This document shows, in pieces, positions 50,578 to 64,000 of a DNA stretch of 64,000 nt. The stretch lies in contig CALAOT010000093.1 of NCBI GenBank assembly GCA_937889545.1, forward strand, positions 1 to 64,000, given 5' to 3'. Position numbers and translations under genes: made by a program. The stretch comes from an uncultured Opitutaceae bacterium. GTDB lineage: Bacteria; Verrucomicrobiota; Verrucomicrobiia; Opitutales; Opitutaceae. The notes beneath the pieces were generated by a model. The model saw only the letters and a program-made list of their open reading frames with translations, did not search any database and was not told the origin of the DNA. Position 1 is the first letter of the stretch, and the number at the start of each line of letters is the position of its first letter.

Positions 50578-52941
50578 TCAGTTGCCGGAGCCCACGGAGC
50601 GCATTTCTGCCGAAATCCTTTGGGCGAGCTTCGGATCTCCCGTTAACATTGCTACGCGCTCCGCCCGCGTGAGCTCGACGAGCGCGTCCGTCGGCCTGTT
50701 TGATTTCATCAGGTGGCTGGCGAGGTATAGATGGATCTGCGCATCCGCGGGCCCGCACAAGGTCGCCGCGCGCAGGCACGCGGCGACATTCTCCTCGTCG
50801 CTGCGCTCCATGTAGATCTTGGCGAGGTCCACATTATTCTCAAAGTTGAGAGGCTGGGTTCGCCTGGCCTCCGACATCAGGGCGAAGGCCTCCTCCGTCC
50901 GTCCCTCGCCCTTAAAGAGTGACACCAGGCGGCGGAGCGCGTCGGCATTCTCCGGGTCCCGCGCCAGCACGGTCCGGCATTCGCCAGCGGCCTCGTCGCG
51001 GTCTCCGTGAAAAAAGAGCAAGTCAGCGTAGGTCAGCCGGATATAGCTGCTTTCGGGATTCCTGCCGAGCGCTGCTGACAGGGTCGCCCGCCCCGTTTCA
51101 AAATCCCTCGTCTTTCGCAGGACCTCGACGAGCTCCGTGTAGGACGGCAGGTGGTAGGGGTCCATCCGGAGCGACTCGAGGATTGCCGCCTGCGCTTCGC
51201 CGTAGCGCCCGAGGGCGACCAGGATGCGGCCGCGCTGCACGAGGAGGTCCGGGAACCGCGGCTCGATCTCCAGGACGCGGTCGACCAGCTGGAGGGACCG
51301 GTCGGGCAGGCTGGAATAGTCATCCACCTCTGATAGGCGCAGCGCGAGGTTGGGATCGTTCGGATCGTGCAGCAAAGCGGCCCCTATCTGCTCCCGGGCC
51401 CGCGCGAGTCCTTCCGCCGAGGTCGCCTTCCCGGTTGCGAGCTCGACCTCCCGATTATGGCGCACCTGGTCCTCGCCAAACGTCAGCTGACCCGTGAAGG
51501 GCGGCTTTCCCCAGAGGGGTTCCATCTGCCTGAGCGTCCTAAGCCTTCCGAAGTCGGTGTAGCCGACGGCCGCGGCGCAGCCGGCGTCGTCGAGCCAATT
51601 CCCCGGGGGCGGGCTGGCGCCGAAAAGCGCGAGCGCTGATTGCTCCGCAACCATGCGACCGATGCGCTTGTCGCCCTCCCAGTTGAAGTGCACGTGCTCC
51701 AGGAGGATCTCCCGTCCCGCGGGAGGGCCCGCAGATGCGGCATCGGAGCCCATCATGAGCGCCGAGTCCACGAGGAGGACCGATCCTGCCGACTCGGAGG
51801 CGACCCTTCTTATGATGGCATTGATCCGCGCATCGGGCCGGAATCGGAGCGCATCCCAGTGGAGGGCTTCCAGAAAATGGGTGCGGGCCCCGGGGACGTC
51901 GCCCTTGTCCTGGAGCAGCTTTCCCAGGACATAGTGGGCGTCCGCGTATTCGGGGTCGATCTTCAGCGCCGCGTTGAGGGATTCGATCGCTTCGTCCGAA
52001 AGGCCCAGCTCCCAAAGCTTCGTGCCCGTTTCGTAGGACCGCCTCCAGCGGTCCAGCTGCGGCCCGGTCATCCCGTCGCGATGAAGGGAGGTGAACGGGG
52101 CGCTGTCCCTGAGGTTGGCGACGACGGTCGCGAGGACCGTCTTGATCCCGCTCCTCGAGGCGACGCCGACGATGTCCCGCAGGTTGGCCTCGAAGTTCCG
52201 GTAGACGCCTTCGAGCCTGGGGTCGTCGCCCCGCACGGTCCTGCCCGTAAACGTGCTCATCCCCCGCCAGTCGGCAGGATGGTTCGCGGGCTTCGCGAGC
52301 CTGCCCAGGAGGCGGGCGATGAGCTGTCCCATGCGGGTGCCGCCCGTCCAGATGGACGCCCGAATAACGAATAACGGAGGCATCGCAGACAGGTTCGCGG
52401 AGCCCGGACCGTAGGGGCCGACGACCTCGTTGTTTCCCATGTAGACGACAAACAGGTCGGGTTCGAATTTGGCGGCCTGCCGGGCCATCTGGCGGACCAC
52501 GTGCGAGTTGATCGCGACGATGCCGAGGTTGAAGACTTCAAACTGCCTGCCGGGATAGGCGGCCCGCAGCTGCGAGCCGAGAAGCGAAGCGAAGCCAAAG
52601 CCCGGCTCGGGGGTCCCCTTGGCCGCGGACTCCCCGAGGACGAAGATTCGCACGTGTCCGGGCTCCTTGTGGCGGGGAATCCGGAAGTTCAGGGGGTACA
52701 GGTCAAACTGGGCCGGGAAGAAGGGAGCCGTGAAGTTGGGATTCGTCCGAAAACACCCGGCCTTCACGTCGGGCACGAACAGGTCCGTGTTTTTCCCGTA
52801 GCCGGCGATCCTCAGCGACCCCTCAAGCGCGAGCGCAAAGGCAATCGGTGCCCCGACGGAGAGAAGGCAGCGCATGAGCCAGACCTTGCGCTTGGAAGGC
52901 CGCCCTGGGCCGTTTTCGCCCGGCTGCGAGGCTATGCCCAT
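50578..52941 (-). CDS. membrane-anchored SGNH-hydrolase-like protein with TPRs
   Basis: 787 residues. One N-terminal membrane helix (LMRCLLSVGAPIAFALALEG) anchors the protein. The SGNH-like domain has a nucleophile block VRIFVLGESAAKGTPEPG (GES in place of GDS), an Asn block (VVYMGNNEVVGPYG), and a late His block LLEHVHFNWEGD. Several TPR-like repeats lie both inside (about 325-370) and at the C terminus (about 520-780). SGNH proteins remove or transfer acyl groups on polysaccharides or lipids. This combined form is common in Verrucomicrobiota and Planctomycetes but uncharacterised as far as I know. It is convergent with the unknown protein upstream. Confidence 0.8.
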   Translation of the reverse strand: MGIASQPGENGPGRPSKRKVWLMRCLLSVGAPIAFALALEGSLRIAGYGKNTDLFVPDVKAGCFRTNPNFTAPFFPAQFDLYPLNFRIPRHKEPGHVRIFVLGESAAKGTPEPGFGFASLLGSQLRAAYPGRQFEVFNLGIVAINSHVVRQMARQAAKFEPDLFVVYMGNNEVVGPYGPGSANLSAMPPLFVIRASIWTGGTRMGQLIARLLGRLAKPANHPADWRGMSTFTGRTVRGDDPRLEGVYRNFEANLRDIVGVASRSGIKTVLATVVANLRDSAPFTSLHRDGMTGPQLDRWRRSYETGTKLWELGLSDEAIESLNAALKIDPEYADAHYVLGKLLQDKGDVPGARTHFLEALHWDALRFRPDARINAIIRRVASESAGSVLLVDSALMMGSDAASAGPPAGREILLEHVHFNWEGDKRIGRMVAEQSALALFGASPPPGNWLDDAGCAAAVGYTDFGRLRTLRQMEPLWGKPPFTGQLTFGEDQVRHNREVELATGKATSAEGLARAREQIGAALLHDPNDPNLALRLSEVDDYSSLPDRSLQLVDRVLEIEPRFPDLLVQRGRILVALGRYGEAQAAILESLRMDPYHLPSYTELVEVLRKTRDFETGRATLSAALGRNPESSYIRLTYADLLFFHGDRDEAAGECRTVLARDPENADALRRLVSLFKGEGRTEEAFALMSEARRTQPLNFENNVDLAKIYMERSDEENVAACLRAATLCGPADAQIHLYLASHLMKSNRPTDALVELTRAERVAMLTGDPKLAQRISAEMRSVGSGN

Positions 52942-53128: not shown

Positions 53129-55990
53129 TCAGAACTTCGTCTGGACCGAGAACGAGAACTTGCGCGGCTCAAGGAAGTAGAAGTTCGATCCCTGGGTCAT
53201 GCTTCCGTTCTGGTTATACCCCGTGAAGACGAGGTTCTGGTTGTTGGTCAGGTTGTCCACGTTGAACTGGTAGGTGACGTGGAGCTTCTTGCCCGACACC
53301 CCATAGACGGTCGCGTACTTGAGAAACGCGATGTACGTCGTGTAGGCGGGCGAGTACAGGATGCCCCCGGTCGAGGTTTCCTGCTCGCCAAGAGCGGTGG
53401 CGCCGGCGCCGATCGTCAGCCCCTTGACCAGCGTGTCGGTGAAGGTGTAGGCCGCGACCACGTTGAACGTGGACTTGACGGTTCCCTGGTTGTTGGCGGA
53501 GACAGCCGTGTTGGTCAGCTCGAGCTGCGCATTGGCGAGGTCCTGCTTGACCTGGCCGTCCAGCGAGGTGCCGCCATTGGCGACCGCCGACCATTCCGTG
53601 AGGTGGGCCGCAAAGTATCCCCGGCTTCCAGGCAGGTCATTCGTCGACACCGACTTGGGCTCTGAATAGCTAATCTGGATCTTCCAGTTGGGCGTCGGAT
53701 TCGCAACGGCGGATATTTCGTAGCCCGTGTCCTTCAGGTCCTCCGTGTCCGCATAGTTGAACTGGGTATCGTAATTGGGGGGGGTGCCCGAGAGCTGCCC
53801 GGCCGGCCCGATGTCCGTCGCCGTGCCGCCCGCCTTGTAGTAGTCGTTCCAGATTCCCTGGATGCCGATGCCGTCGTTGCTGATCCGGCCGTGCGAGACG
53901 TCTTTGTAATAGTCGGTCGTGATGTAGTACTTCCCGTCGTCGGTGGAGAAGCGCAGGCCGACCGAGTTACCCTTGCCGACCGCCGGACCAAACTGGGTCC
54001 CGGAAAGGCTGGGGGAGACTCCGTTGGCGTTGGGAGCAAAGTTGCTCGAGTAATTGTAGGTGGCGGCGATCTGCTTGGTGATGAAGCCGACGAGGCCCGC
54101 GGAGTAGCTATTTCCGGTGTCGTTCTCGAAGCTGTGGCCCTGGGGGTACGGCAGCCCGAATGGGGGCCGCACGCTCTGGAGCAGGTCGTTCGAGTAGGCG
54201 TCGTGGCGGGCGCCCAGCGTGACATCCAGCCGGTCGTCCCAAAGGCGTGTCTGCGAGACGGCGCCGAAGTACTTGATCTCCTCGGCGAGGTCGTGGTCGA
54301 ACCAGTTGAAGCCGAGAGGCTGGTAGACGATCGGATGGCCGTTGAAGGAGGACGGCAGGTTGATCGCGTCGTTCGGGTGGTCAAAATACTCGCGCGCCCA
54401 GATCATGTTCTCGGTCCATGGGCCGGTGTTCCAGTTTGCGGGGAAGTTGTCACCAAAGCTGGCGATGTACTGGCGGGTCAAGAGGAGGTGGAACGAGTAG
54501 CCGCCCGAGAAGCTCAGCCACTCCTTGACCGGAATGTTGAACACGCTTGTGTCGAAGTGATAGTTAAACTGGCCGCGGAATTCGTTCACCGAGTGGTCCT
54601 GCTGTTGCTTGTCGAGGAACATGTCGGCGTAGAGCTGGCCGAACTCTGGGTTCGGCGCCCCGTTCGGCAGCTGCTTATTGATGTCGACCGAGACGTTTCC
54701 GGGGGACTCGAAGTTCTTTGAGACCTCCGTGTCGGAGTAACGGTACGCGGAGAGCTCGAGCTCGCAGTGCTCGTTGATCTTCTGGTCGATGTACGCCGTG
54801 AGCGTGTAGTAATTCAGCGTGTTGTTGCCGTTGGAGGGCCCGATTGTGAAATCCCTGCTCTTGAGCGCCGGAACCGTCTGGCTGGTGCCGACAAGGGTGT
54901 AGGGAGAGGGCCTCAGCTCGGCGGTGGAGTAGTAGGGCGCGTCCGCAAGGCCGACGCCGTTGTAGCCCGCCGACCAGTTTGCCATGGTGCCCTCGGCGGG
55001 AATCCAGAGGTAGAAGGGGTTGAACGGACCGCTCCATTGGGACATGCCGTTCGGATTGTACGTCGTGCCGCCTGTGGGGGTCGCGCCCCAGGTCTGGGAG
55101 GCGGTCTTGCCGTCCCACTGGGAGTAGTGGTCCTGCAGGTTCTCGCTGAACTGGGGAAGAACCACCTTGTAGATCTCAGCGTCAAACCGGACGGAGGTGT
55201 TGTTGGAAACCTTGAACGTGGCGGCCTCGGATGCGCCCCACCTCTTGATCAGGTCCGCCTTGCGCCAGTCCTCGTCGCGGTCGCCGAGGAGGTTGATGCG
55301 AATGCCCAGGTCGTCCTTCTTCAGGATGGAGAGGCGTTCGTTCACATCGAACGTCAGGCGCACGCCTCCGAAGCTGTTCACGACGAGGTCCGCCTCCGAG
55401 AAGTCCTGGTCGAAGCGCGGCTTCTTGGTGTAGGAGGCGACGGACCCGCCGAGGCTGCCGACGCCGAACAGGATCGAGTTGGGCCCGAGGTTGAGCTCGA
55501 AGCGGTCGACGTTGAAGAAGTCCTTGATGGCGTAGATCGGGAAGTAGTTGACCGTCGGCGCAGTGCCGCCCTGTGGGCCGGAGCCTGCACCGCGCAGGTT
55601 GACCGCCCATGAATTGAACTCATTTCCGCTTCCAACGTTGGGCGTCAGGTTCTGGGGAATCGCGTTCATCGTCCACTTGAGAGCGTCCGTTGCGTTCGTC
55701 AGCTGCAAGTCGTCAATGAATTCTGCGGTCAGCGCCGAGACCGTCGTGGGCGTGATCGCGAGCGGTGTGTTGTTGCGCCCGCCCGCAAGGGAATTGACGG
55801 CGACGTAGCCCACGTCCGTCGAAGTATCGACGGTGAACGCGTTGAGTACAACCGGCGTTTCTGCGGCCGCCTGGGCTTGCTGTTCCGTGGAGGCGCCGCT
55901 CGGGGTGACGGCTTGTGCCCTCAACGAGGCACCGAGGCCGAGCGTCAGCAGGAGGGCCAACGCGTATCTGCAGGGATGTAGTTTTTGCAT
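53129..55990 (-). CDS. TonB-dependent outer-membrane receptor
   Basis: 953 residues from the ATG at 55990 (MQKLHPCRYALALLLTLGLG, signal peptide ending near RAQA). The plug domain holds LAITPTTVSALTAEFIDDLQ, NATDALKWTMNAIPQN and LNLGPNSILFGVGSLGGSVA. The remainder is a 22-strand-type beta barrel rich in aromatic and Asn residues, and the final residues FSFSVQTKF end in Phe as needed for barrel assembly. No carboxypeptidase-like N-terminal domain is present. The adjacent GH144, GH3 and GH94 genes suggest the ligand is a beta-1,2-linked glucan or a fragment of it. No SusD partner is seen. Confidence 0.92.
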   Translation of the reverse strand: MQKLHPCRYALALLLTLGLGASLRAQAVTPSGASTEQQAQAAAETPVVLNAFTVDTSTDVGYVAVNSLAGGRNNTPLAITPTTVSALTAEFIDDLQLTNATDALKWTMNAIPQNLTPNVGSGNEFNSWAVNLRGAGSGPQGGTAPTVNYFPIYAIKDFFNVDRFELNLGPNSILFGVGSLGGSVASYTKKPRFDQDFSEADLVVNSFGGVRLTFDVNERLSILKKDDLGIRINLLGDRDEDWRKADLIKRWGASEAATFKVSNNTSVRFDAEIYKVVLPQFSENLQDHYSQWDGKTASQTWGATPTGGTTYNPNGMSQWSGPFNPFYLWIPAEGTMANWSAGYNGVGLADAPYYSTAELRPSPYTLVGTSQTVPALKSRDFTIGPSNGNNTLNYYTLTAYIDQKINEHCELELSAYRYSDTEVSKNFESPGNVSVDINKQLPNGAPNPEFGQLYADMFLDKQQQDHSVNEFRGQFNYHFDTSVFNIPVKEWLSFSGGYSFHLLLTRQYIASFGDNFPANWNTGPWTENMIWAREYFDHPNDAINLPSSFNGHPIVYQPLGFNWFDHDLAEEIKYFGAVSQTRLWDDRLDVTLGARHDAYSNDLLQSVRPPFGLPYPQGHSFENDTGNSYSAGLVGFITKQIAATYNYSSNFAPNANGVSPSLSGTQFGPAVGKGNSVGLRFSTDDGKYYITTDYYKDVSHGRISNDGIGIQGIWNDYYKAGGTATDIGPAGQLSGTPPNYDTQFNYADTEDLKDTGYEISAVANPTPNWKIQISYSEPKSVSTNDLPGSRGYFAAHLTEWSAVANGGTSLDGQVKQDLANAQLELTNTAVSANNQGTVKSTFNVVAAYTFTDTLVKGLTIGAGATALGEQETSTGGILYSPAYTTYIAFLKYATVYGVSGKKLHVTYQFNVDNLTNNQNLVFTGYNQNGSMTQGSNFYFLEPRKFSFSVQTKF

Positions 55991-56082
55991 GTGGTGGTGG
56001 GTAGGGACGGACATTTCGTGAATCCGCAAAGACTTCTCGCAAAGCGAGGAGGGGGGTACGGGGGACTAGCGTTGCGGCCTGA

Positions 56083-56111
56083 TTTATATGACAACGTTAT
56101 CATTGCAACAA
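56083..56111 (-). promoter_or_regulatory. receptor promoter with operator in spacer
   Basis: On the minus strand TTGTTG (56106-56111) and TATAAA (56083-56088) are separated by exactly 17 bp. The spacer contains TGATAACGTTGTCA (56089-56102), a near-perfect 14-bp palindrome with a central CG, the pattern of LacI-family operators. A repressor bound here would block RNA polymerase. It lies 99 bp upstream of the receptor start. Confidence 0.65.
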
Positions 56112-56167
56112 AAAAAATGTCGGCCCTCAATTCCCCTCTAAATATCCCATGGCCGGGCGCCAGTAGC

Positions 56168-56181
56168 CGCAAACGTTATCA
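56168..56181. promoter_or_regulatory. second LacI-type operator-like half-conserved site
   Basis: CGCAAACGTTATCA shares nine consecutive bases (ACGTTATCA) with the operator at 56089-56102 plus G and AA in the left half. The centres are 79 bp apart. It lies between the GH144 stop and the receptor promoter. Confidence 0.5.
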
Positions 56182-56211
56182 GTGGATTGATTCTGGCGCG
56201 GGCTGGGCCGC

Positions 56212-58413
56212 CTAGGGCCTCGGGCCCCGGTCCGGGGAGAAGCCAATCGCATCGAGCGCCGTCCGTATCTCCGGGTTGGCCATGAAACACTTCCACGCCA
56301 GCCCGGACCGGTGGTTCTCGATCATGACAACGATTTGCGCCTGATTAAGTCCCATCCAGACCGGTTGATACCAGTCGTCCGTCTCGTTGAAGCCATCATA
56401 GAAGCCGTAGATGCCCCATGTCTTGGGCCCCAGATCGCGGTAAAAATGCTTGAGGGCGGCCATTGACTCCTTCGGCGTGTAAGGAAACTCCCCCAGGGCC
56501 GCCGAACAGCAGATGGTTCCGTTGTCCGCGTTCGGCTGCGGCATTCCGCCGCCGGAGTTGATTCCGGCCGATAGGCCCCAGCAATCCGGCCCATAGCCTC
56601 TGAAATGCCCGGGATTGGCGATGCAGTAGGCGCGGTTGACGAGGGCGATGTTGCGGTTGTTCCAGAAGTAGTTCGTGAAGCGGTCCCTCTTGCCGCGCGG
56701 GTCGAAGCCCAGGAAGGAGAACTGCGTGAAGAACAGGCTGCCCCCGGAGCCTTCCCCGACATCGAGCTTGATGCCGTAGAAATTCCGCCCGCTGGCATAG
56801 TGGTCGCCAATGGTCGTGCGGCTCCAATTCCGGCGGTATTGGACCGCCGTGTCGGACTGGCCGGCCCAGCCCGTGTAGTAGAGGCTCGCGGGAACCGGAT
56901 GGGTCGGCGAGGCGATGGCGAGCAGGTAGGCAACCATCGTCTCGTTCCAGCCCACCAGCGGGTGGCTGATGTACCAGCCGTGGTCGGGCGACCAATGCCA
57001 GTACAGGAAGTCGCCGGTCGGGCTCTGCCGGTACCAGTCCCACTCGACCCCGCGCCAGAGGGAAGTGACCGTCTCGCGGATCTCCCTCTCAGCCGGCGTG
57101 TCGCGGTCGAAGTACTGGCGCGCCGTCAGGAGGCCCTGCATCAGGAACGCGGTCTCCACGAGGTCGCCGCCGTCGTCATAAGGGCCGAAGTAGGGAATGA
57201 CCTTGCCCGTCCGCCCGTCCAGGAAGTGCGGCCAGACGCCGTGAAACCGGTCGGCGCCCTTCAGGAAGCGCACGATCCTGAGGATACGTCCGGCGCCCTC
57301 CTCGCGTGTGACGAATCCCCGCTCGGTCCCCACGATGAGCGCCATCGCCCCGAACCCGGAGGCTCCGAGTGCGACAAGGTTCGGGTCGCCCGGCACGATT
57401 TCCGGGGCCATGCCGGCATTGGGGTGGCCCCGCTCCCAGTAGTAGCGGAAGCAGGCCTCCTGCACCATGGTGAGAAGGTCGTTGTCGCCGAGCTCCCGAG
57501 TTGTGGCCGACACGGCCGGGGACTCTGGGGATTCGGCGCCTGCCGGGGACACAGCGCTGACCTTGAAAAACGCCTTCAGCCCCGGCTTGCCCACAAATGC
57601 CGCATAGCGGTCGAGGTCCCCCTGCTGGATCCCGATCGGGTCGAACGTGATGCCATCCCAGGAGCGGTAGACCTTGTAGCGCAGGACATCGTCTTTTGGG
57701 TTCAGCGCCCATTTCAGATCGAAATGCCGCTCGCCCGCCTTTATCGCGAGACCCGCGGGCGCGGCGGGCGGCGGCTTCGCGGCCGCGCTTTCCCAACCGA
57801 ACTGAACGTCGTCGATGAAGAGCGTGTGCGCCTTGCCGTCGTCCAGCCCCTGCTCAAACACGGCGTCCGCCAGACGGCGCACGTCGAACCGGCTGTCGTC
57901 GGTGCTTCGGTAAATCGCCCGGAAATTGGCGATCGGCAGCCGCACCTGGGCCCATTGGCCCGCCTGCAGCGCCCCGCGCCCGGAAAGCATGTTGATCGTG
58001 AAGGTCGCCGCGCCGTCTGCGTCCTCCAGGCGGATGCGGGGCGCGTCGTCAGGCGCGAGGCCCGTCGGCGAGAGGCACCAGAAGGTGATCGTGTCCCCGT
58101 CGAAGTCGTTGAGGAGGCCGTAGCGGGAGCGGGTCTTGAGCTTCGCCTGCCAATCGCCGCCCGTGGCTGATTTCCAGGTCAGGCGCAGGGAGGTCGGAGG
58201 GACGACGAAGTGCCCCGAGTCGAGGGGAATCCTGCCGTTGACTAGGTCGAATGCACTTGGAGCCGTTACCGTTCCTTCACTCAGACTGTAGGAGCGGGCC
58301 GGGACGTTTTGATCGAAGACGACGTGGCGGTCATAGCTCGACTCGACGGGTCTCCGCTCGGACGCCGCCAGCAGCGGGCACAGGATAAGAGGGGCGAGGG
58401 CAAGGACGCGCAT
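56212..58413 (-). CDS. GH144-type endo-beta-1,2-glucanase candidate
   Basis: 733 residues from the ATG at 58413 (MRVLALAPLILCPLLAASER, signal peptide). Residues about 40-215 form a beta-sandwich, carbohydrate-binding-like domain. About 220-305 is a fibronectin III-like domain (PAAPAGLAIKAGERHFDLKW). From about 311 the alpha/alpha-barrel catalytic domain begins (FRYYWERGHPNAGM). Conserved parts match the glucoamylase-like/GH144 group: GWNETMVAYLLAIASPTHPV, FTQFSFLGFDPRGKRD, GYGPDCWGLSAG and ALGEFPYTPKESMAALKHFY. Characterised GH144 enzymes cut linear beta-1,2-glucan to sophorose and larger oligomers. Exact activity needs assay. It precedes the receptor gene on the same strand. Confidence 0.82.
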   Translation of the reverse strand: MRVLALAPLILCPLLAASERRPVESSYDRHVVFDQNVPARSYSLSEGTVTAPSAFDLVNGRIPLDSGHFVVPPTSLRLTWKSATGGDWQAKLKTRSRYGLLNDFDGDTITFWCLSPTGLAPDDAPRIRLEDADGAATFTINMLSGRGALQAGQWAQVRLPIANFRAIYRSTDDSRFDVRRLADAVFEQGLDDGKAHTLFIDDVQFGWESAAAKPPPAAPAGLAIKAGERHFDLKWALNPKDDVLRYKVYRSWDGITFDPIGIQQGDLDRYAAFVGKPGLKAFFKVSAVSPAGAESPESPAVSATTRELGDNDLLTMVQEACFRYYWERGHPNAGMAPEIVPGDPNLVALGASGFGAMALIVGTERGFVTREEGAGRILRIVRFLKGADRFHGVWPHFLDGRTGKVIPYFGPYDDGGDLVETAFLMQGLLTARQYFDRDTPAEREIRETVTSLWRGVEWDWYRQSPTGDFLYWHWSPDHGWYISHPLVGWNETMVAYLLAIASPTHPVPASLYYTGWAGQSDTAVQYRRNWSRTTIGDHYASGRNFYGIKLDVGEGSGGSLFFTQFSFLGFDPRGKRDRFTNYFWNNRNIALVNRAYCIANPGHFRGYGPDCWGLSAGINSGGGMPQPNADNGTICCSAALGEFPYTPKESMAALKHFYRDLGPKTWGIYGFYDGFNETDDWYQPVWMGLNQAQIVVMIENHRSGLAWKCFMANPEIRTALDAIGFSPDRGPRP

Positions 58414-58457
58414 GGATCGGGGAGGGAGAAAGGGGCAAATGCTCTTTTTGATTGCGA

Positions 58458-58471
58458 TGCAAATGTTGTCA
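58458..58471. promoter_or_regulatory. third operator-like site, between GH144 and GH3 genes
   Basis: On the minus strand TGACAACATTTGCA matches the receptor operator at 11 of 14 positions, with identical TGACAAC. A perfect TTGACA (−35-like) for the GH144 gene overlaps it. A matching −10 is poor. It is placed to act on both divergent genes. Confidence 0.5.
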
Positions 58472-58538
58472 AAAGGATACTTCCCCATGCGGGGACCGCT
58501 TGATCTCGCGCCTGCTGAGCCTGCATCCCGAAGCAATC

Positions 58539-60842
58539 ATGCAACGAAATCCCTCGATCATCCCCGTTCTCGTTTGGCTGCTACCTCTGGCCGTGCAGAC
58601 CGGTAGGCTCGCCGCGCAGACCGGGGACCTTGGGCCGCCGCAGGCGCAAGCCCGCGTCGACGCCCTACTCGGGCGGATGACTCTCGAGGAGAAGGTCGGC
58701 CAGCTTAACCAGATTTCGCCCGATTCGACCACCGGTCCGAAGCAGGCGGTCGAGAATGCCGATGAACTGATCAGGAATGGGTCGGTTGGCGGCATGCTCA
58801 ACGCGGTGACCGCCCGCGAGACCAATGGCCTTCAACGGGAGGCGGTCGAAGGGTCGCGGATGCACATTCCGATCCTCTTCGGGCTCGACGTGATCCACGG
58901 GTTCCGCACCCTCTTCCCGATCCCGCTGGGCCTTTCCGCGAGCTGGGATCCGGCCCTTGTGGGGCAGACCGCGCGCTACGCAGCCCAGGAGGCGTCGAGC
59001 CAGGGTGTCCGCTGGGTTTTCTCGCCGATGGTGGATATCGCGCGCGATCCCCGGTGGGGCCGGATCGCAGAGGGGGCCGGCGAGGACCCGTACCTCGGCT
59101 CGGCATTCGCCCGCGCATACGTCCGGGGCTATCAGGGAGAGAGCCTGGACAACCCGACCTCGGTCGTCGCGTGCGCAAAGCACTTCGTGGGATACGGGGC
59201 TGCCGAGGGCGGACGGGATTACAATACGACGGAGATATCGGAGCGCACGCTGCGCGGCGTGTACCTGCCGCCCTTTCAAGCGGCGGTCGGCGATGGCGTG
59301 GGGACCGTCATGTCCGCGTTCAACGCAATCAATGGAGTGCCGGCCAGCGCCAACGCCTTCACGCTCACCCAAGTGCTGCGCACCGAGTGGGGTTTCCGGG
59401 GGTTCGTCGACAGCGACTGGACTGCGGTCCGGGAGGTCATGCTTCATGGCATTGCAGACGACGAGAGGACCGCGGCGCTCAGGAGCTTCCTCGCCGGGGT
59501 CGACATGGACATGCAAAGTGGCATCTACTTGCACAATGTCGCTGGCCTGGTCCGTTCGGGCCAGGTGCCCATGGAGCGCCTTGACGAGTCGGTGCGCGCG
59601 ATCCTGCGGATCAAGGTCGCCCTGGGGCTCTTCGAGCATCCCTATGTCGGCGAGGCAGTCGTCCCGGACCCGGCGGCCGCTGCGCTGGGCGCGACGCTTG
59701 CGCGCAAGGCCGCTGAGGAATCCTTTGTTCTCCTTGAGAACCGGAAGTTCGGGGGCGCTCCGCTGCTTCCCCTTGCGGCGTCAAAAGGCAGGAGGATTGC
59801 ATTGCTCGGCCCGCTGGCGGACAGCGCCGAGGACATGCTGGGCTGCTGGTCGTGCCAGGCAGAGCCCAGCGACATGGTGACCCTGCGCAGCGCGTTGTCC
59901 GAGCGCGCGGCGCGCCAGGGGATGCATTTGTCCTTCGCTCCGGGAACGGAGGTGTCAGGCACTTCAGAGGCGGGGTTTTCCAAGGCGATGGATGCCGCGA
60001 GGAACGCCGACGTGGTTGTGATGGCGCTGGGAGAGAGCGGCCATAGCTCCGGCGAGGCCTCCTCCAGGTCCGACATCAACCTTCCTGGAAACCAGGAGAA
60101 GCTCCTGGAAGCGGTCGTGGGGACGGGCAAGCCCGTCGTCCTCGTTGTGTTCAGCGGGCGGCCGCTTTCGATCGCGTGGGCTTCGGAGCACGTCCCGGCG
60201 GTCCTGATGGCCTGGTTTCCGGGTACCCAGGCGGGCCCGGCGCTGGTGCGCACGTTGTTTGGCGATGCAGAGCCGGCCGGGCGGCTGACCGTTTCAGTCC
60301 CGCGCTCGGTCGGACAAGTGCCGATCTACTACAACCACCTGAACACCGGCCGGCCCCGCGTAGACCCGATCGGCCTGGGCGCGACCAAGCCGGACCCCTA
60401 TTTCGTCACCGGATACATAGACCAGGAGAACACGCCGCTCTATCCGTTCGGCTATGGGCTCACCTACACGTCGTTCAGCTATTCCCCCGCCCACGTGAGC
60501 GCCGCCACCCTCAGCAGCAAGGACATCAACCTTGGGAAGGCGCGGCTGGCGGTTAGCGCCGAAGTCAGGAACACCGGCAACCGCGAGGGGACGGAAACGG
60601 CGCAGCTCTACATCCGGCTGCGCGGAACAAGCGTCGCGCGCCCGGTGAGGGAGCTGAAGGGCTTCCAGCGCGTGCATCTTGCACCCGGAGAGAGCCGGCG
60701 CCTGGAATTCGAATTGGGCCGGGACGAGCTCGCGTTTTGGAACGCGGACATGAAGGAAGCGGCGGAGCCCGGCTCTCTCTACGTCTGGGTGGCGCCTGAC
60801 AGCGCGCGGGGAACGCCCGCGAAAGTGGAGCTGGCGGAATAG
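58539..60842 (+). CDS. bglX: GH3 beta-glucosidase, BglX-like
   Basis: 767 residues from the ATG at 58539 (MQRNPSIIPVLVWLLPLAVQ, signal peptide). The (beta/alpha)8 domain has the nucleophile Asp293 in GFVDSDWTA, substrate-site residues in KHFVGYGAAEGGRDYN, and FGLDVIHGFRT. The alpha/beta sandwich domain (ALLGPLADSAEDMLGCW, VVMALGESGHSSGEASSRSD) supplies the acid/base. A C-terminal fibronectin III-like domain begins about residue 675 (VSAEVRNTGNREGTETAQLY). Characterised GH3 enzymes remove terminal beta-glucose. In this locus sophorose or longer beta-1,2-glucooligosaccharides are likely substrates. It is periplasmic and divergent from GH144. Confidence 0.92.
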   Translation: MQRNPSIIPVLVWLLPLAVQTGRLAAQTGDLGPPQAQARVDALLGRMTLEEKVGQLNQISPDSTTGPKQAVENADELIRNGSVGGMLNAVTARETNGLQREAVEGSRMHIPILFGLDVIHGFRTLFPIPLGLSASWDPALVGQTARYAAQEASSQGVRWVFSPMVDIARDPRWGRIAEGAGEDPYLGSAFARAYVRGYQGESLDNPTSVVACAKHFVGYGAAEGGRDYNTTEISERTLRGVYLPPFQAAVGDGVGTVMSAFNAINGVPASANAFTLTQVLRTEWGFRGFVDSDWTAVREVMLHGIADDERTAALRSFLAGVDMDMQSGIYLHNVAGLVRSGQVPMERLDESVRAILRIKVALGLFEHPYVGEAVVPDPAAAALGATLARKAAEESFVLLENRKFGGAPLLPLAASKGRRIALLGPLADSAEDMLGCWSCQAEPSDMVTLRSALSERAARQGMHLSFAPGTEVSGTSEAGFSKAMDAARNADVVVMALGESGHSSGEASSRSDINLPGNQEKLLEAVVGTGKPVVLVVFSGRPLSIAWASEHVPAVLMAWFPGTQAGPALVRTLFGDAEPAGRLTVSVPRSVGQVPIYYNHLNTGRPRVDPIGLGATKPDPYFVTGYIDQENTPLYPFGYGLTYTSFSYSPAHVSAATLSSKDINLGKARLAVSAEVRNTGNREGTETAQLYIRLRGTSVARPVRELKGFQRVHLAPGESRRLEFELGRDELAFWNADMKEAAEPGSLYVWVAPDSARGTPAKVELAE

Positions 60843-60885
60843 CTCCAAGCCCGGTGCCGAGGGGAGCCTGCCGGGAGACGGCGAG

Positions 60886-60913
60886 AGCGCGGGCCCGGGC
60901 TCGCAAGCGCTCC
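60886..60913. other. hairpin between convergent GH3 and GH94 genes
   Basis: GAGCGC (60886-60891) can pair with GCGCTC (60908-60913) across a GC-rich loop. There is no T-run in either direction. It is a possible weak bidirectional terminator in the 95-bp gap. Confidence 0.3.
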
Positions 60914-60937
60914 CGTGAGCGACGGGGCCGCCCCGTG

Positions 60938-63900
60938 TCAGAGCTCGACGACAATCACGTTGTCGCCGGAGGAAAGAAGAGCCTTCACCGCATCCTCCCG
61001 AAAGCGCAGGCCCCCGACGCGGTACGGACTGGCCTCGCGCCGTCCCCCGGTGAGCTCAACGCCGTTAACGGTCACCGAGCCCGGGGCGAATGACCGGCCC
61101 TTGACCCGGTAGCGAACTTCGACGGGCCGGCCGCACAAGGTCACCCGGGCGGCGATCCCGTCGAGGCTCCGCGGCAGCACCGGGTCGAAGACCACGTCGC
61201 CGAACGACTCCCGCAGCCCGAGCAGGCAGGCGCGGACAGCGTGAATGAACAATCCTGGGCCGCTTGAATAGAGCCGCCAGCCGCCGCGCACGCGCACGGA
61301 TCCGGTCCGCAGCTCCTTCCACCGGAGCGCCGCCTCGACGCGATCATGGAAATCGGCGTCCGAGCTTGAGAAATACACATTGCTCTGCCTGGCCATCGCG
61401 TGGGGGACAACCTCCCTCAAACCCACCGGATTGACCACCTGCAGCGCGGTCCAGAGCCGGTCCGCGTCCCCGAGCTTGGCAGCGGCCTCGGCGTAGCGCA
61501 GGTGCGCGTGGACGTATTGCAGCCCGATTTCGCGGCCCACGTTCGCAGCCGTATCCGCCCGCTTGAAGAGGCGCTCCATTCCGCCGCCATAGGTCGTCGG
61601 TTCGCTCATTAGCCGCGCGCCGTCGGGGTACAGGAGCTCCTGGTTCACGATGGCCATGTGCCTCGCAGCCTCCTCCAGCGTGAAGAGCTCTGCCAGGATT
61701 GAGCGCGTCATCGGAAGCAGCCGGTAGCGGATGCCGGTCACGGCGTCCGAAGGATGGAGGAGGGGCCGGGTTGTCCCGTCGGCCTCCGCCACCAGGAACC
61801 CCGCGACAACGGAGCCCGGCATCAGCCGGTCCGCAAAATCGCGGCGCATGCGCGCGAGCACCATCTCCAGCCGCGCCAGGCGCGCCGGCTCTGATGCCCG
61901 GCGGAGGACCTCGGCCAGCTGCCTGAACGTCTGATACGAGAGCTCAACGGTCCAGGCGCTGATCATGCGCGTGCGCATCGCCGGGTCCGCGGGCTGCAGG
62001 GTGTCGTCCCAGTCCCCATCGCCGTAGTTGACGAGCGCCGTGCCGGGGACAAACCGGGCCTCGCATTGATCGACGACCCGGTCGCAGTGCTGGAGCAGGG
62101 TCTCTTCGGGGCCCACCGGGCCGAAGCTCTCCGGGTCCGTGTAGCCGGTCCTCCATCCCAGAAACGCCAGGTCGTTGCTGGCCTCAATGTAGTCACACAG
62201 CGCCTTCAACGGCCAGAATAAGACGTCGCCGTGGCTGTGGGTCTGCTGGATGGACCGATACGGCGGGTGCATGAACCACTGTGGCCAGGAGCCGTCGCGG
62301 ACATACTGCTGCGAGAACACGGTCTCAAGCATGCGGCGCGCGATCGGCCACTCGCGCTCGGCGAGAAGCCATTCGGCCGAACCCTGGCAGACGTCGCGCA
62401 CCCCCCAGGCGGCGCCGCCCTGCTGCTCCAGGCCATGCGGGGCCGAGAAGTGGATCGCGGCGTTGTGGGCAAGCCACGGCAGCATTTCGTCGAGCCTGGC
62501 CACCGCGGGCGCCAACCCGTCTCGGTCCCGCGGTTTTCGGGGGGAGGGGGACAGCGTCAGGCGCACCGGCGCGGGAGGAGGCGCAGCCGGTTCGCATCCG
62601 GCCCTCCATTCGGATCGCGCCGCCTCCACAGCGGCCGGGAGCAAGCCCGTGCCGTCCAGGGTCCCGCAGAGGATCACCCCGAATCGGCTCACCTTGGCTG
62701 TGCGAAGCACCAGGCAAGGCTGCCCCCGGGATCGCCCGTCCGCATAAAGCAGTCCATCGTCTCCGATCTGGGTCTCGCAGCCCGCATCGGCCGCGGCGAT
62801 GGCAAAGCAAGCTCCGGGAAGATGGCTCCCGACAACGCTGGCAGGGTCCGGTTTGCATGCGGCCCATCGCTCGTCGTGGAAGACGCGGACTTCTCCGGAG
62901 TGGTCGAATTCGTTCACGTCCAGCGCAAGGGTGTGCGTGACCAGGAATTCGGCCGGCTGTCCCCCGGTGCCCACCTGCAGCTCCAGGAATGCGGCGGCGC
63001 GTGCGCGGGAACACCATACCCGGGCCGTCACGACTTCGGCTCCCGAGCGATAAATCCAGCGCACATCCGATGGCGTCATGGCGAACGCCGATGGCACGCC
63101 AAGCTGCTGCCAGGAGCCCGCGCGGCGAATGAAGACCCGCTGGCCCGTCGCCCGCCCCAGGCCCAGCGTTTCCCGGAGCACCGGAAGGAGGCGGGCAAAC
63201 GTCGGGTTTCCCAGATAGGTCTGGACCGAGAATATTCCGGCCGCGTAGCACGTCGTGCCGAACTGGCCGGGATCGATCCAGCGCCAGGTGCCGCTGCGAA
63301 GGATGTGGCCGTGCGGCCGCGCAACGGCCGCCTCCTTGTCGCGCCCCACGACATGCGTCGCAACCCCATGGAAGAATGCGAGGAGCCCTCCGTCGGCCCC
63401 GCGCTCCTCGTGGCGGCGTTCGCCCGGGAACCATTCGGACCATTCGTTTTCCAGCGGCCGGTCCCCGTGAAGCCAGGGTGCGGTCACAAAAAGCGACGGC
63501 GTGGCCGGCGCCGCATCGTTCGCCAGGCCCGCGGCGCAGTGGGCTGCGACTCCGGGCGACCAGTCCGCGGGCAACACCTCGCGCAGGCGGTCGAGATCCG
63601 CGGCACAAGAGGCCTCGGGATGGTCGGGGAGGAAGCGGGCCACGAAGACGGTGTCGCTTGACGCGCCTGGTTCCAGGTCAACGGCCCGGCTCTGGAGCCC
63701 AGCCAGGGCGGATTCGTACTGGAGCCGGCGCGACTGCAGATTCCTGTTCCTCACGGCAGCCGGCACGCTGGCCAGGCGATGGTCCGAACCGAAGAACTGC
63801 CTTGCGTCCGTGCAGAACGCCGCGGCCCCGCCTGCGCAAGCGACAGCCAGCCACGGATGGCAGCCGCCGGCCGTCGGCTGATTCTGCCGCGCCAGCACGG

Positions 63901-64000
63901 CCCACCCCAGCCGCGCGTCCTCGATCGGAAGGACGTCTATGTACTGCGAAGTGAAGGCTTCGCTGTTGCGAACGGTTGCCTCGTCGCCCAGGCCCAGGTC
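60938..64000 (-). CDS. GH94 phosphorylase, probable 1,2-beta-oligoglucan phosphorylase, 5' end outside window
   Basis: 1020 residues are visible and the frame is still open at the window edge (LGLGDEATVRNSEAFTSQYI). The GTG at 63898 is therefore an internal Val. The length is already that of the long GH94 group that contains 1,2-beta-oligoglucan phosphorylases (about 1100 residues). The (alpha/alpha)6 domain has HSHGDVLFWPLKALCDYIEA and GDGDWDDTLQPADPAMR, where the general-acid Asp is expected. LHGDRPLENEWSEWFPGERR and SEPTTYGGGMERLFKRADTA are other strong blocks. No signal peptide can be judged because the start is missing. It would phosphorolyse imported oligosaccharides to glucose-1-phosphate. 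Cellobiose- or chitobiose-type GH94 is the alternative. Confidence 0.82.
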   Translation of the reverse strand, partial: DLGLGDEATVRNSEAFTSQYIDVLPIEDARLGWAVLARQNQPTAGGCHPWLAVACAGGAAAFCTDARQFFGSDHRLASVPAAVRNRNLQSRRLQYESALAGLQSRAVDLEPGASSDTVFVARFLPDHPEASCAADLDRLREVLPADWSPGVAAHCAAGLANDAAPATPSLFVTAPWLHGDRPLENEWSEWFPGERRHEERGADGGLLAFFHGVATHVVGRDKEAAVARPHGHILRSGTWRWIDPGQFGTTCYAAGIFSVQTYLGNPTFARLLPVLRETLGLGRATGQRVFIRRAGSWQQLGVPSAFAMTPSDVRWIYRSGAEVVTARVWCSRARAAAFLELQVGTGGQPAEFLVTHTLALDVNEFDHSGEVRVFHDERWAACKPDPASVVGSHLPGACFAIAAADAGCETQIGDDGLLYADGRSRGQPCLVLRTAKVSRFGVILCGTLDGTGLLPAAVEAARSEWRAGCEPAAPPPAPVRLTLSPSPRKPRDRDGLAPAVARLDEMLPWLAHNAAIHFSAPHGLEQQGGAAWGVRDVCQGSAEWLLAEREWPIARRMLETVFSQQYVRDGSWPQWFMHPPYRSIQQTHSHGDVLFWPLKALCDYIEASNDLAFLGWRTGYTDPESFGPVGPEETLLQHCDRVVDQCEARFVPGTALVNYGDGDWDDTLQPADPAMRTRMISAWTVELSYQTFRQLAEVLRRASEPARLARLEMVLARMRRDFADRLMPGSVVAGFLVAEADGTTRPLLHPSDAVTGIRYRLLPMTRSILAELFTLEEAARHMAIVNQELLYPDGARLMSEPTTYGGGMERLFKRADTAANVGREIGLQYVHAHLRYAEAAAKLGDADRLWTALQVVNPVGLREVVPHAMARQSNVYFSSSDADFHDRVEAALRWKELRTGSVRVRGGWRLYSSGPGLFIHAVRACLLGLRESFGDVVFDPVLPRSLDGIAARVTLCGRPVEVRYRVKGRSFAPGSVTVNGVELTGGRREASPYRVGGLRFREDAVKALLSSGDNVIVVEL

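What the first reader, a model, noticed from the sequence alone, without database searches (positions are those of the whole stretch)
53129..64000. Likely beta-1,2-glucan utilisation locus
A TonB receptor, a GH144-type enzyme, a GH3 beta-glucosidase and a long GH94 protein lie together. In known systems GH144 cuts beta-1,2-glucan, GH3 trims the products, and 1,2-beta-oligoglucan phosphorylase yields glucose-1-phosphate. There is no SusD, and the receptor lacks a carboxypeptidase-like N-terminal domain, so the system would differ from Bacteroidetes loci.
Basis: partly seen in the sequence, partly recalled or inferred. Interest (0 to 1): 0.65.

Follow-up and report, generated by a model that had tools for sequence, protein, structure and literature searches.

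The report
Opitutaceae beta-1,2-glucan utilisation locus
A bacterium of the Verrucomicrobiota, close to peat-soil relatives, carries one co-regulated gene set that very probably imports and eats beta-1,2-glucan, a sugar polymer made by other bacteria; the enzymes are of known kinds, and the new parts are the host group, a shared control switch and an inner-membrane transporter that differs between relatives.

Summary
[quoted passage not shown] The contig continues to 72868 with a LacI regulator, a second GH144 and a sugar ABC transporter. The window GH144 matches exo-type BDI_3064 over its full length; the second is closest to XcSGL. The GH94 protein matches LpSOGP over its full length and keeps the active-site residues checked; cellobiose phosphorylase is at noise level. 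There is no SusD, and the receptor has only a plug domain. The locus is conserved across Opitutaceae. A 14-bp operator (consensus TGCAAACGTTGTCA) sits at all four promoter regions, with one other match in the genome. In eight relatives' genomes the exact consensus occurs only at genes of this kind, including three sites away from the SOGP locus. Sister genera use an MFS symporter where this genus has the ABC transporter. A TonB + ABC + GH144 + GH94 cluster is already described in Ignavibacterium album, so this is a new member of a known kind. All activities are inferred from sequence. The main rivals are a mixed or substituted glucan substrate, and recycling of self-made cyclic glucan (the genome encodes a synthase).

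The parts
53129..56029 (-). TonB-dependent receptor, 966 aa, plug domain only at the N-terminus
   Evidence: Pfam Plug E 2e-6; a receptor sits by SOGP in 20 of 21 Opitutales loci outside the window's own group
56089..56102 (-). LacI-type operator TGATAACGTTGTCA upstream of the receptor gene
   Evidence: 0.01 pattern matches expected in the window by shuffling
56168..56181 (-). weaker second operator-like site TGATAACGTTTGCG (one mismatch)
   Evidence: similar sites in sisters L074 and L075
56212..58536 (-). GH144a: exo-type GH144 with N-terminal region; likely start at 58413, signal peptide
   Evidence: PF10091 E 3e-63; full-length match to BDI_3064 5z06 E 8e-202 against CpSGL 2e-122; catalytic Glu equivalents kept
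58458..58471 (+). operator TGCAAATGTTGTCA in the divergent GH144a/GH3 promoter region
   Evidence: conserved in L042, L074, L075, L076
58452..60842 (+). GH3 beta-glucosidase, likely start 58539, signal peptide (periplasmic)
   Evidence: PF00933, PF01915, PF14310; best solved relatives 9urf, BT_3567 5xxl (2.7e-194), Lin1840 4zoa (3e-152)
60938..64000 (-). SOGP: 1,2-beta-oligoglucan phosphorylase (GH94), cytoplasmic; 1182 aa in all, its first 486 bases lie past the window end. The locus goes on in contig numbering: operator 64678-64691, LacI 64870-65952 (-), operator 66009-66022, GH144b 66186-68972 (+), ABC binding lipoprotein 68923-70431 (+), permeases 70415-71305 and 71312-72424 (+)
   Evidence: SOGP_N, SOGP_2nd, SOGP_4th; LpSOGP 5h3z E 2.4e-189 over 52-1176; active-site residues; genes past the end:

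Best explanation
This is a beta-1,2-glucan utilisation regulon of an Opitutaceae bacterium (Verrucomicrobiota). The TonB receptor carries beta-1,2-glucan or its fragments across the outer membrane. In the periplasm the XcSGL-like GH144b cuts the chain internally and would open rings, the BDI_3064-like GH144a trims sophorose from non-reducing ends, and GH3 hydrolyses sophorose and short oligomers to glucose. The ABC transporter brings remaining oligomers into the cytoplasm, where SOGP releases glucose-1-phosphate. A LacI-family regulator bound to TGCAAACGTTGTCA-type operators switches all four promoter regions together. Shown here: gene content, families, conserved catalytic residues, conserved synteny and operator conservation. 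Inferred: all activities, the substrate, the cell locations, and that this LacI protein binds this operator.
For: GH144a full-length to BDI_3064 (676 bits), well above CpSGL (413). GH144b best to XcSGL with acid, base and clan Phe positions kept. SOGP full-length to LpSOGP, 634 bits against 13 for cellobiose phosphorylase, with equivalents of Q621, R630, D631, W758, D760, R907, E917, Y922, H924, Y1004 and S1005 kept. Opitutaceae SOGPs form one clade with 100 SH-aLRT. SOGP, TonB receptor, LacI, GH144 and GH3 travel together in more than 20 Opitutales loci. Operator pattern: 5 matches in 4.33 Mb, 4 of them in the locus; present in 23 of 26 distinct loci of the family. In 8 relatives' genomes all 10 exact-consensus sites lie at such genes, three of them away from the SOGP locus: at GH144 homologues in G375 and G169, and at GH3 next to GH144b in G467. 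The ABC cassette's nearest homologues in other families of the phylum include ones beside GH144b (L128, L129) or SOGP (L065), and 5 of 12 such genomes have SOGP against 26 of 386 overall, p = 5e-4.
Against: No activity has been measured. The binding protein is nearer to mannan-binding MBP1 (136 bits) than to the Listeria sophoro-oligosaccharide protein Lin1841 (37 bits), so the ABC substrate rests on context. GH144a lacks the clan's subsite -3 Tyr; this fits an exo mode but is unproven. The ABC ATPase is not in the locus; one MalK-type ATPase lies elsewhere. A periplasmic GH3 would compete with SOGP for oligomers, and SOGP leaves sophorose in the cytoplasm, for which no cytoplasmic beta-glucosidase was sought or identified. 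The operator pattern was drawn from the four sites of this locus, so its count in this genome alone is partly circular.
Confidence: 0.85

Rival explanations
1. The locus recycles the cell's own cyclic beta-1,2-glucan rather than feeding on that of others.
For: [quoted passage not shown]
Against: The operator does not occur at the synthase; the only match outside the locus is at C23. A TonB receptor and a solute-binding lipoprotein point to uptake from outside. In sisters the exact operator lies only at catabolic genes.
Confidence: 0.08
2. The locus degrades a different or mixed glucan, for example a substituted or branched osmoregulated periplasmic glucan, with unsubstituted beta-1,2 chains only part of it.
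For: GH3 enzymes of the BglX type are broad; the binding protein resembles a mannan-binding protein; related loci add GH31 and an unclassified (alpha/alpha)6 enzyme.
Against: Two GH144 enzymes and SOGP, kinds characterised only on beta-1,2 links, are the conserved core; no hydrolase of another glucan family appears in this locus.
Confidence: 0.1
3. Chance neighbours: a TonB siderophore receptor beside unrelated sugar genes.
For: NCBIfam's weak hits for the receptor are siderophore receptors, and the receptor is the least conserved member (about 33-43% outside the nearest sisters).
Against: A receptor occurs beside SOGP in 20 of 21 Opitutales loci outside the window's group and has the operator upstream.
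Confidence: 0.02

Closest known systems
Ignavibacterium album GH144 cluster (IALB_1177-1187; PMC8861115)
   Same: Two GH144 proteins, a GH94 (SOGP-like) protein, an ABC sugar-binding protein; uptake through a TonB-dependent transporter and then an ABC transporter was proposed there
   Different: That cluster has the GH35 glycosyltransferase IaSGT, and its GH94 is described as a homologue of the synthase's C-terminal SOGP domain; no LacI operator is mentioned in the passages read; different phylum
Listeria innocua lin1839-1840 type cluster (SOGP, GH3, sophoro-oligosaccharide-binding ABC protein)
   Same: SOGP beside GH3, LacI and ABC permeases, also seen here in Listeria loci L093-L100
   Different: No outer membrane receptor, GH3 cytosolic (PMC4757417), no GH144 detected in those loci, SOGP only 29-34% identical in best segment
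Bacteroidota enzymes BDI_3064 (GH144, Parabacteroides distasonis) and BT_3567 (GH3, Bacteroides thetaiotaomicron)
   Same: Closest solved relative of GH144a, and among the closest of GH3
   Different: Here there is no SusD and no SusC-type N-terminal domain, and a phosphorylase plus ABC transporter are added

Membership tests
GH144 | PF10091 catalytic domain above cut-off, closest to GH144 members rather than other SGL-clan families | tested here: met
   213.7 and 207.2 bits, cut-off 27; best solved relatives BDI_3064 and XcSGL
GH144 | General acid (CpSGL E211 / XcSGL E239) and proposed base (CpSGL E142) kept as acidic residues | tested here: met
   GWNE and DLVE in GH144a; YSE and PID in GH144b; residues from PMC12102758
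GH144 | Clan Phe (XcSGL F286) | tested here: met
   LFF in GH144a and QLFIHQ in GH144b
GH144 | Clan Tyr at subsite -3 (XcSGL Y367) | tested here: inconclusive
   Conserved Tyr nearby in GH144b (YKAWGG) but not aligned column to column; no Tyr in Opitutaceae GH144a
GH144 | Hydrolysis of beta-1,2-glucan | not testable with these tools
   needs enzyme assay
SOGP (GH94, EC 2.4.1.333) | N-terminal Ndom1 / SOGP_N domain and SOGP architecture | tested here: met
   SOGP_N, SOGP_2nd and SOGP_4th above cut-off; full-length LpSOGP alignment
SOGP (GH94, EC 2.4.1.333) | LpSOGP donor, phosphate and +1 acceptor residues | tested here: met
   equivalents of Q621, R630, D631, W758, D760, E917, Y922, H924, Y1004, S1005 present; the last two lie past the printed alignment and were placed by counting on without gaps
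SOGP (GH94, EC 2.4.1.333) | Phosphorolysis of sophoro-oligosaccharides of DP 3 or more | not testable with these tools
   needs enzyme assay
GH3 beta-glucosidase | GH3 N, C and Fn3-like domains in order | tested here: met
GH3 beta-glucosidase | Preference for sophorose or sophoro-oligosaccharides | not testable with these tools
   BT_3567 and Lin1840 are relatives, which does not fix specificity
Bacteroidota-type PUL (SusC/SusD pair) | SusD lipoprotein beside the receptor | tested here: not met
   no such gene among the locus genes scanned
Bacteroidota-type PUL (SusC/SusD pair) | CarboxypepD_reg N-terminal domain on the receptor | tested here: not met
   Plug only
Sugar ABC importer | Solute-binding protein and two BPD_transp_1 permeases | tested here: met
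   ATPase not in the locus, one MalK-type elsewhere in the genome
Sugar ABC importer | Binding of sophoro-oligosaccharides as in Lin1841 | tested here: inconclusive
   only 37 bits to Lin1841, best hit mannan-binding MBP1; binding itself not testable here

The most novel reading that the evidence does not exclude
Across Opitutaceae a single LacI regulon with a near-invariant operator controls beta-1,2-glucan catabolism, while the inner-membrane step has been exchanged between an MFS symporter (often with an undescribed discoidin plus (alpha/alpha)6 protein family, sometimes with GH31) and an ABC cassette. The extra enzymes would mark which loci can take substituted or alpha-linked cyclic glucans, and the undescribed protein would be a new glycoside-active family.
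Probability: 0.3. Interest if true: 0.6.

Novelty: new member of a known kind. Interest (0 to 1): 0.38.

Why it matters
Beta-1,2-glucans are symbiosis and virulence polymers of many Gram-negative bacteria, and few complete catabolic loci are known. This one adds Verrucomicrobiota, a phylum for which no such locus was found in the paper library searched. It gives a sequence-level operator that picks out further regulon members in relatives, and a natural exchange of inner-membrane transporters that can be compared directly.

Tried and rejected
Structure predictions of the accessory enzyme of sister loci (mean pLDDT 57) and of GH144b (mean pLDDT 45) were too poor to use; the fold search with the first gave GH94- and GH116-like hits with TM-scores near 0.3, kept only as a hint. 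NCBIfam gave no hit for the GH144 or SOGP proteins. A search for palindromes shared between promoters listed none as shared; the operator was seen by reading the printed promoter sequences and was then tested by pattern. Considered and dropped: cellobiose or chitobiose phosphorylase for the GH94 protein; a fragment of a cyclic glucan synthase (domain order and SOGP_N differ).

Full report
Observation. Pfam names a TonB Plug domain at 53129-56029, PF10091 at 56212-58536, GH3 domains at 58452-60842, and SOGP_N, SOGP_2nd and SOGP_4th on the open frame at the window edge. The window is the first 64000 bases of a 72868-base contig in a 4.33-Mb, 128-contig genome. On the contig the SOGP gene is complete (60938-64486, 1182 aa).

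What lies beyond the window. After SOGP come a LacI-family regulator (64870-65952, -), a second PF10091 protein of 928 aa (GH144b, 66186-68972, +), a lipoprotein solute-binding protein (68923-70431, +) and two ABC permeases (70415-71305 and 71312-72424, +).

What the enzymes are. The window GH144 (GH144a) aligns over almost its whole length, N-terminal region included, to BDI_3064 of Parabacteroides distasonis (676 bits), against 413 bits for the endo enzyme CpSGL. A GH144 homologue with an extra N-terminal region is described as releasing sophorose from non-reducing ends (PMC8861115; PMC11842490); that this enzyme is BDI_3064 is from my own knowledge. GH144b is closest to XcSGL, a GH144 beta-1,2-glucanase. 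The residues taken as acid and base in this clan (PMC12102758) are kept in both, and the clan Phe too. The subsite -3 Tyr is missing from Opitutaceae GH144a, which would suit an exo mode (inference). The GH94 protein matches LpSOGP along its length (634 bits; cellobiose phosphorylase 13 bits) and keeps the donor, phosphate and acceptor residues named for LpSOGP (PMC5309861; read from the alignment; Y1004 and S1005 lie past the printed alignment and were placed by counting on without gaps). GH3 is nearest to 9urf and BT_3567, and more distantly to Lin1840.

Kin and conservation. SOGP_N is found in 27 of 387 genomes of the phylum and 15 of 120 of the family. Named relatives are mostly Opitutaceae, the nearest from palsa and bog samples. 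Counting each record once, 26 Opitutales loci were compared. In the 21 outside the window's own group (L044-L056, L078, L079, L085-L089, L092), a TonB receptor sits by SOGP in 20, an MFS_2 symporter in 19, and a LacI gene and a GH144 gene in about 18 each, several of the misses being cut contigs. SOGPs of this order form one clade at 100 SH-aLRT with the window inside it.

Inner-membrane transporter. The window and its nearest sisters (L042/L084, L074, L075, and in part L146) have GH144b followed by the ABC genes; the window's genome and two others of its genus have only distant relatives of the sister genera's MFS gene (26% identity at best in the window's genome). Other Opitutaceae have the MFS gene next to SOGP or nearby. 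Among the ABC cassette's closest homologues in other families of the phylum are ones next to GH144b (L128, L129) or SOGP (L065), and their genomes hold SOGP more often than expected (5 of 12 against 26 of 386, hypergeometric p = 5e-4). This ties the ABC transporter to the pathway; which transporter is ancestral is not settled.

Control. Reading the promoter regions showed a shared near-palindrome. The pattern TGMWAHYGTTKKCA, drawn from the four sites, has two matches in the window against 0.01 expected and five in the whole genome, four of them in the locus, one per promoter region. Since the pattern was drawn from these sites, the stronger test is elsewhere. It occurs in 23 of 26 distinct related loci. 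In eight relatives' whole genomes the exact consensus TGCAAACGTTGTCA occurs ten times: seven in SOGP loci and three elsewhere, which turned out to lie before a GH3 gene beside GH144b (G467:C264), between a GH144 homologue and a TonB receptor (G375:C7) and before another GH144 homologue (G169:C1). Degenerate matches in these genomes mostly lie at unrelated genes, as chance would give.

Mechanism. Outer-membrane uptake by the TonB receptor; periplasmic cutting by GH144b and GH144a; sophorose hydrolysis by GH3; uptake of oligomers by the ABC transporter, with an ATPase from elsewhere (one MalK-type gene in the genome); cytoplasmic phosphorolysis by SOGP; all under one LacI regulator. Locations rest on signal sequences read by eye. 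The pairing of this LacI with this operator rests on adjacency and co-occurrence.

What is known. Listeria has SOGP, GH3 and a sophoro-oligosaccharide-binding ABC protein (PMC4757417; PMC8861115), and Listeria loci came up in the same search. The Ignavibacterium album cluster already joins GH144, GH94, a TonB route and an ABC route. Paper searches found no such locus in Verrucomicrobiota. That library lacks many subscription journals, and commas cannot be searched, so absence is weak evidence.

Verdict. A real, well-supported beta-1,2-glucan locus and a new member of a known kind. Its added value is the host phylum, the operator with out-of-sample support and the transporter exchange.

Noticed in passing
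L045:14322-17525, L090:15135-18332, L049, L050, L055, L058:4055-7144, L061, L062, L069, L070: A roughly 1065-aa protein with a discoidin-type domain and an (alpha/alpha)6-like C-terminal half, without a catalytic Pfam family above cut-off, recurs beside SOGP across the phylum. It is absent from the window locus; the structure model was too poor to place it.
   Followed up: partly
[quoted passage not shown]
   Followed up: partly
L007:9246-10616 (G000:C71): A third, stand-alone PF10091 protein of 456 aa in the same genome, without an obvious signal peptide and without an exact operator match on its contig.
   Followed up: no
L147:8658-13006: In G375 a GH144 homologue and a TonB receptor are divergent around two operator sites, apart from the SOGP locus: a second outpost of the regulon.
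   Followed up: yes
L051:1171-3336, L054:27-2345, L056:15109-17283: GH31 genes join some Opitutales loci, which may point to alpha-linked glucose in the substrate, such as cyclic glucans closed by an alpha-1,6 link.
   Followed up: no
window 50578-52941: TPR protein with a weak GDSL-lipase-like N-terminal domain next to the receptor gene, no operator nearby; likely unrelated.
   Followed up: no
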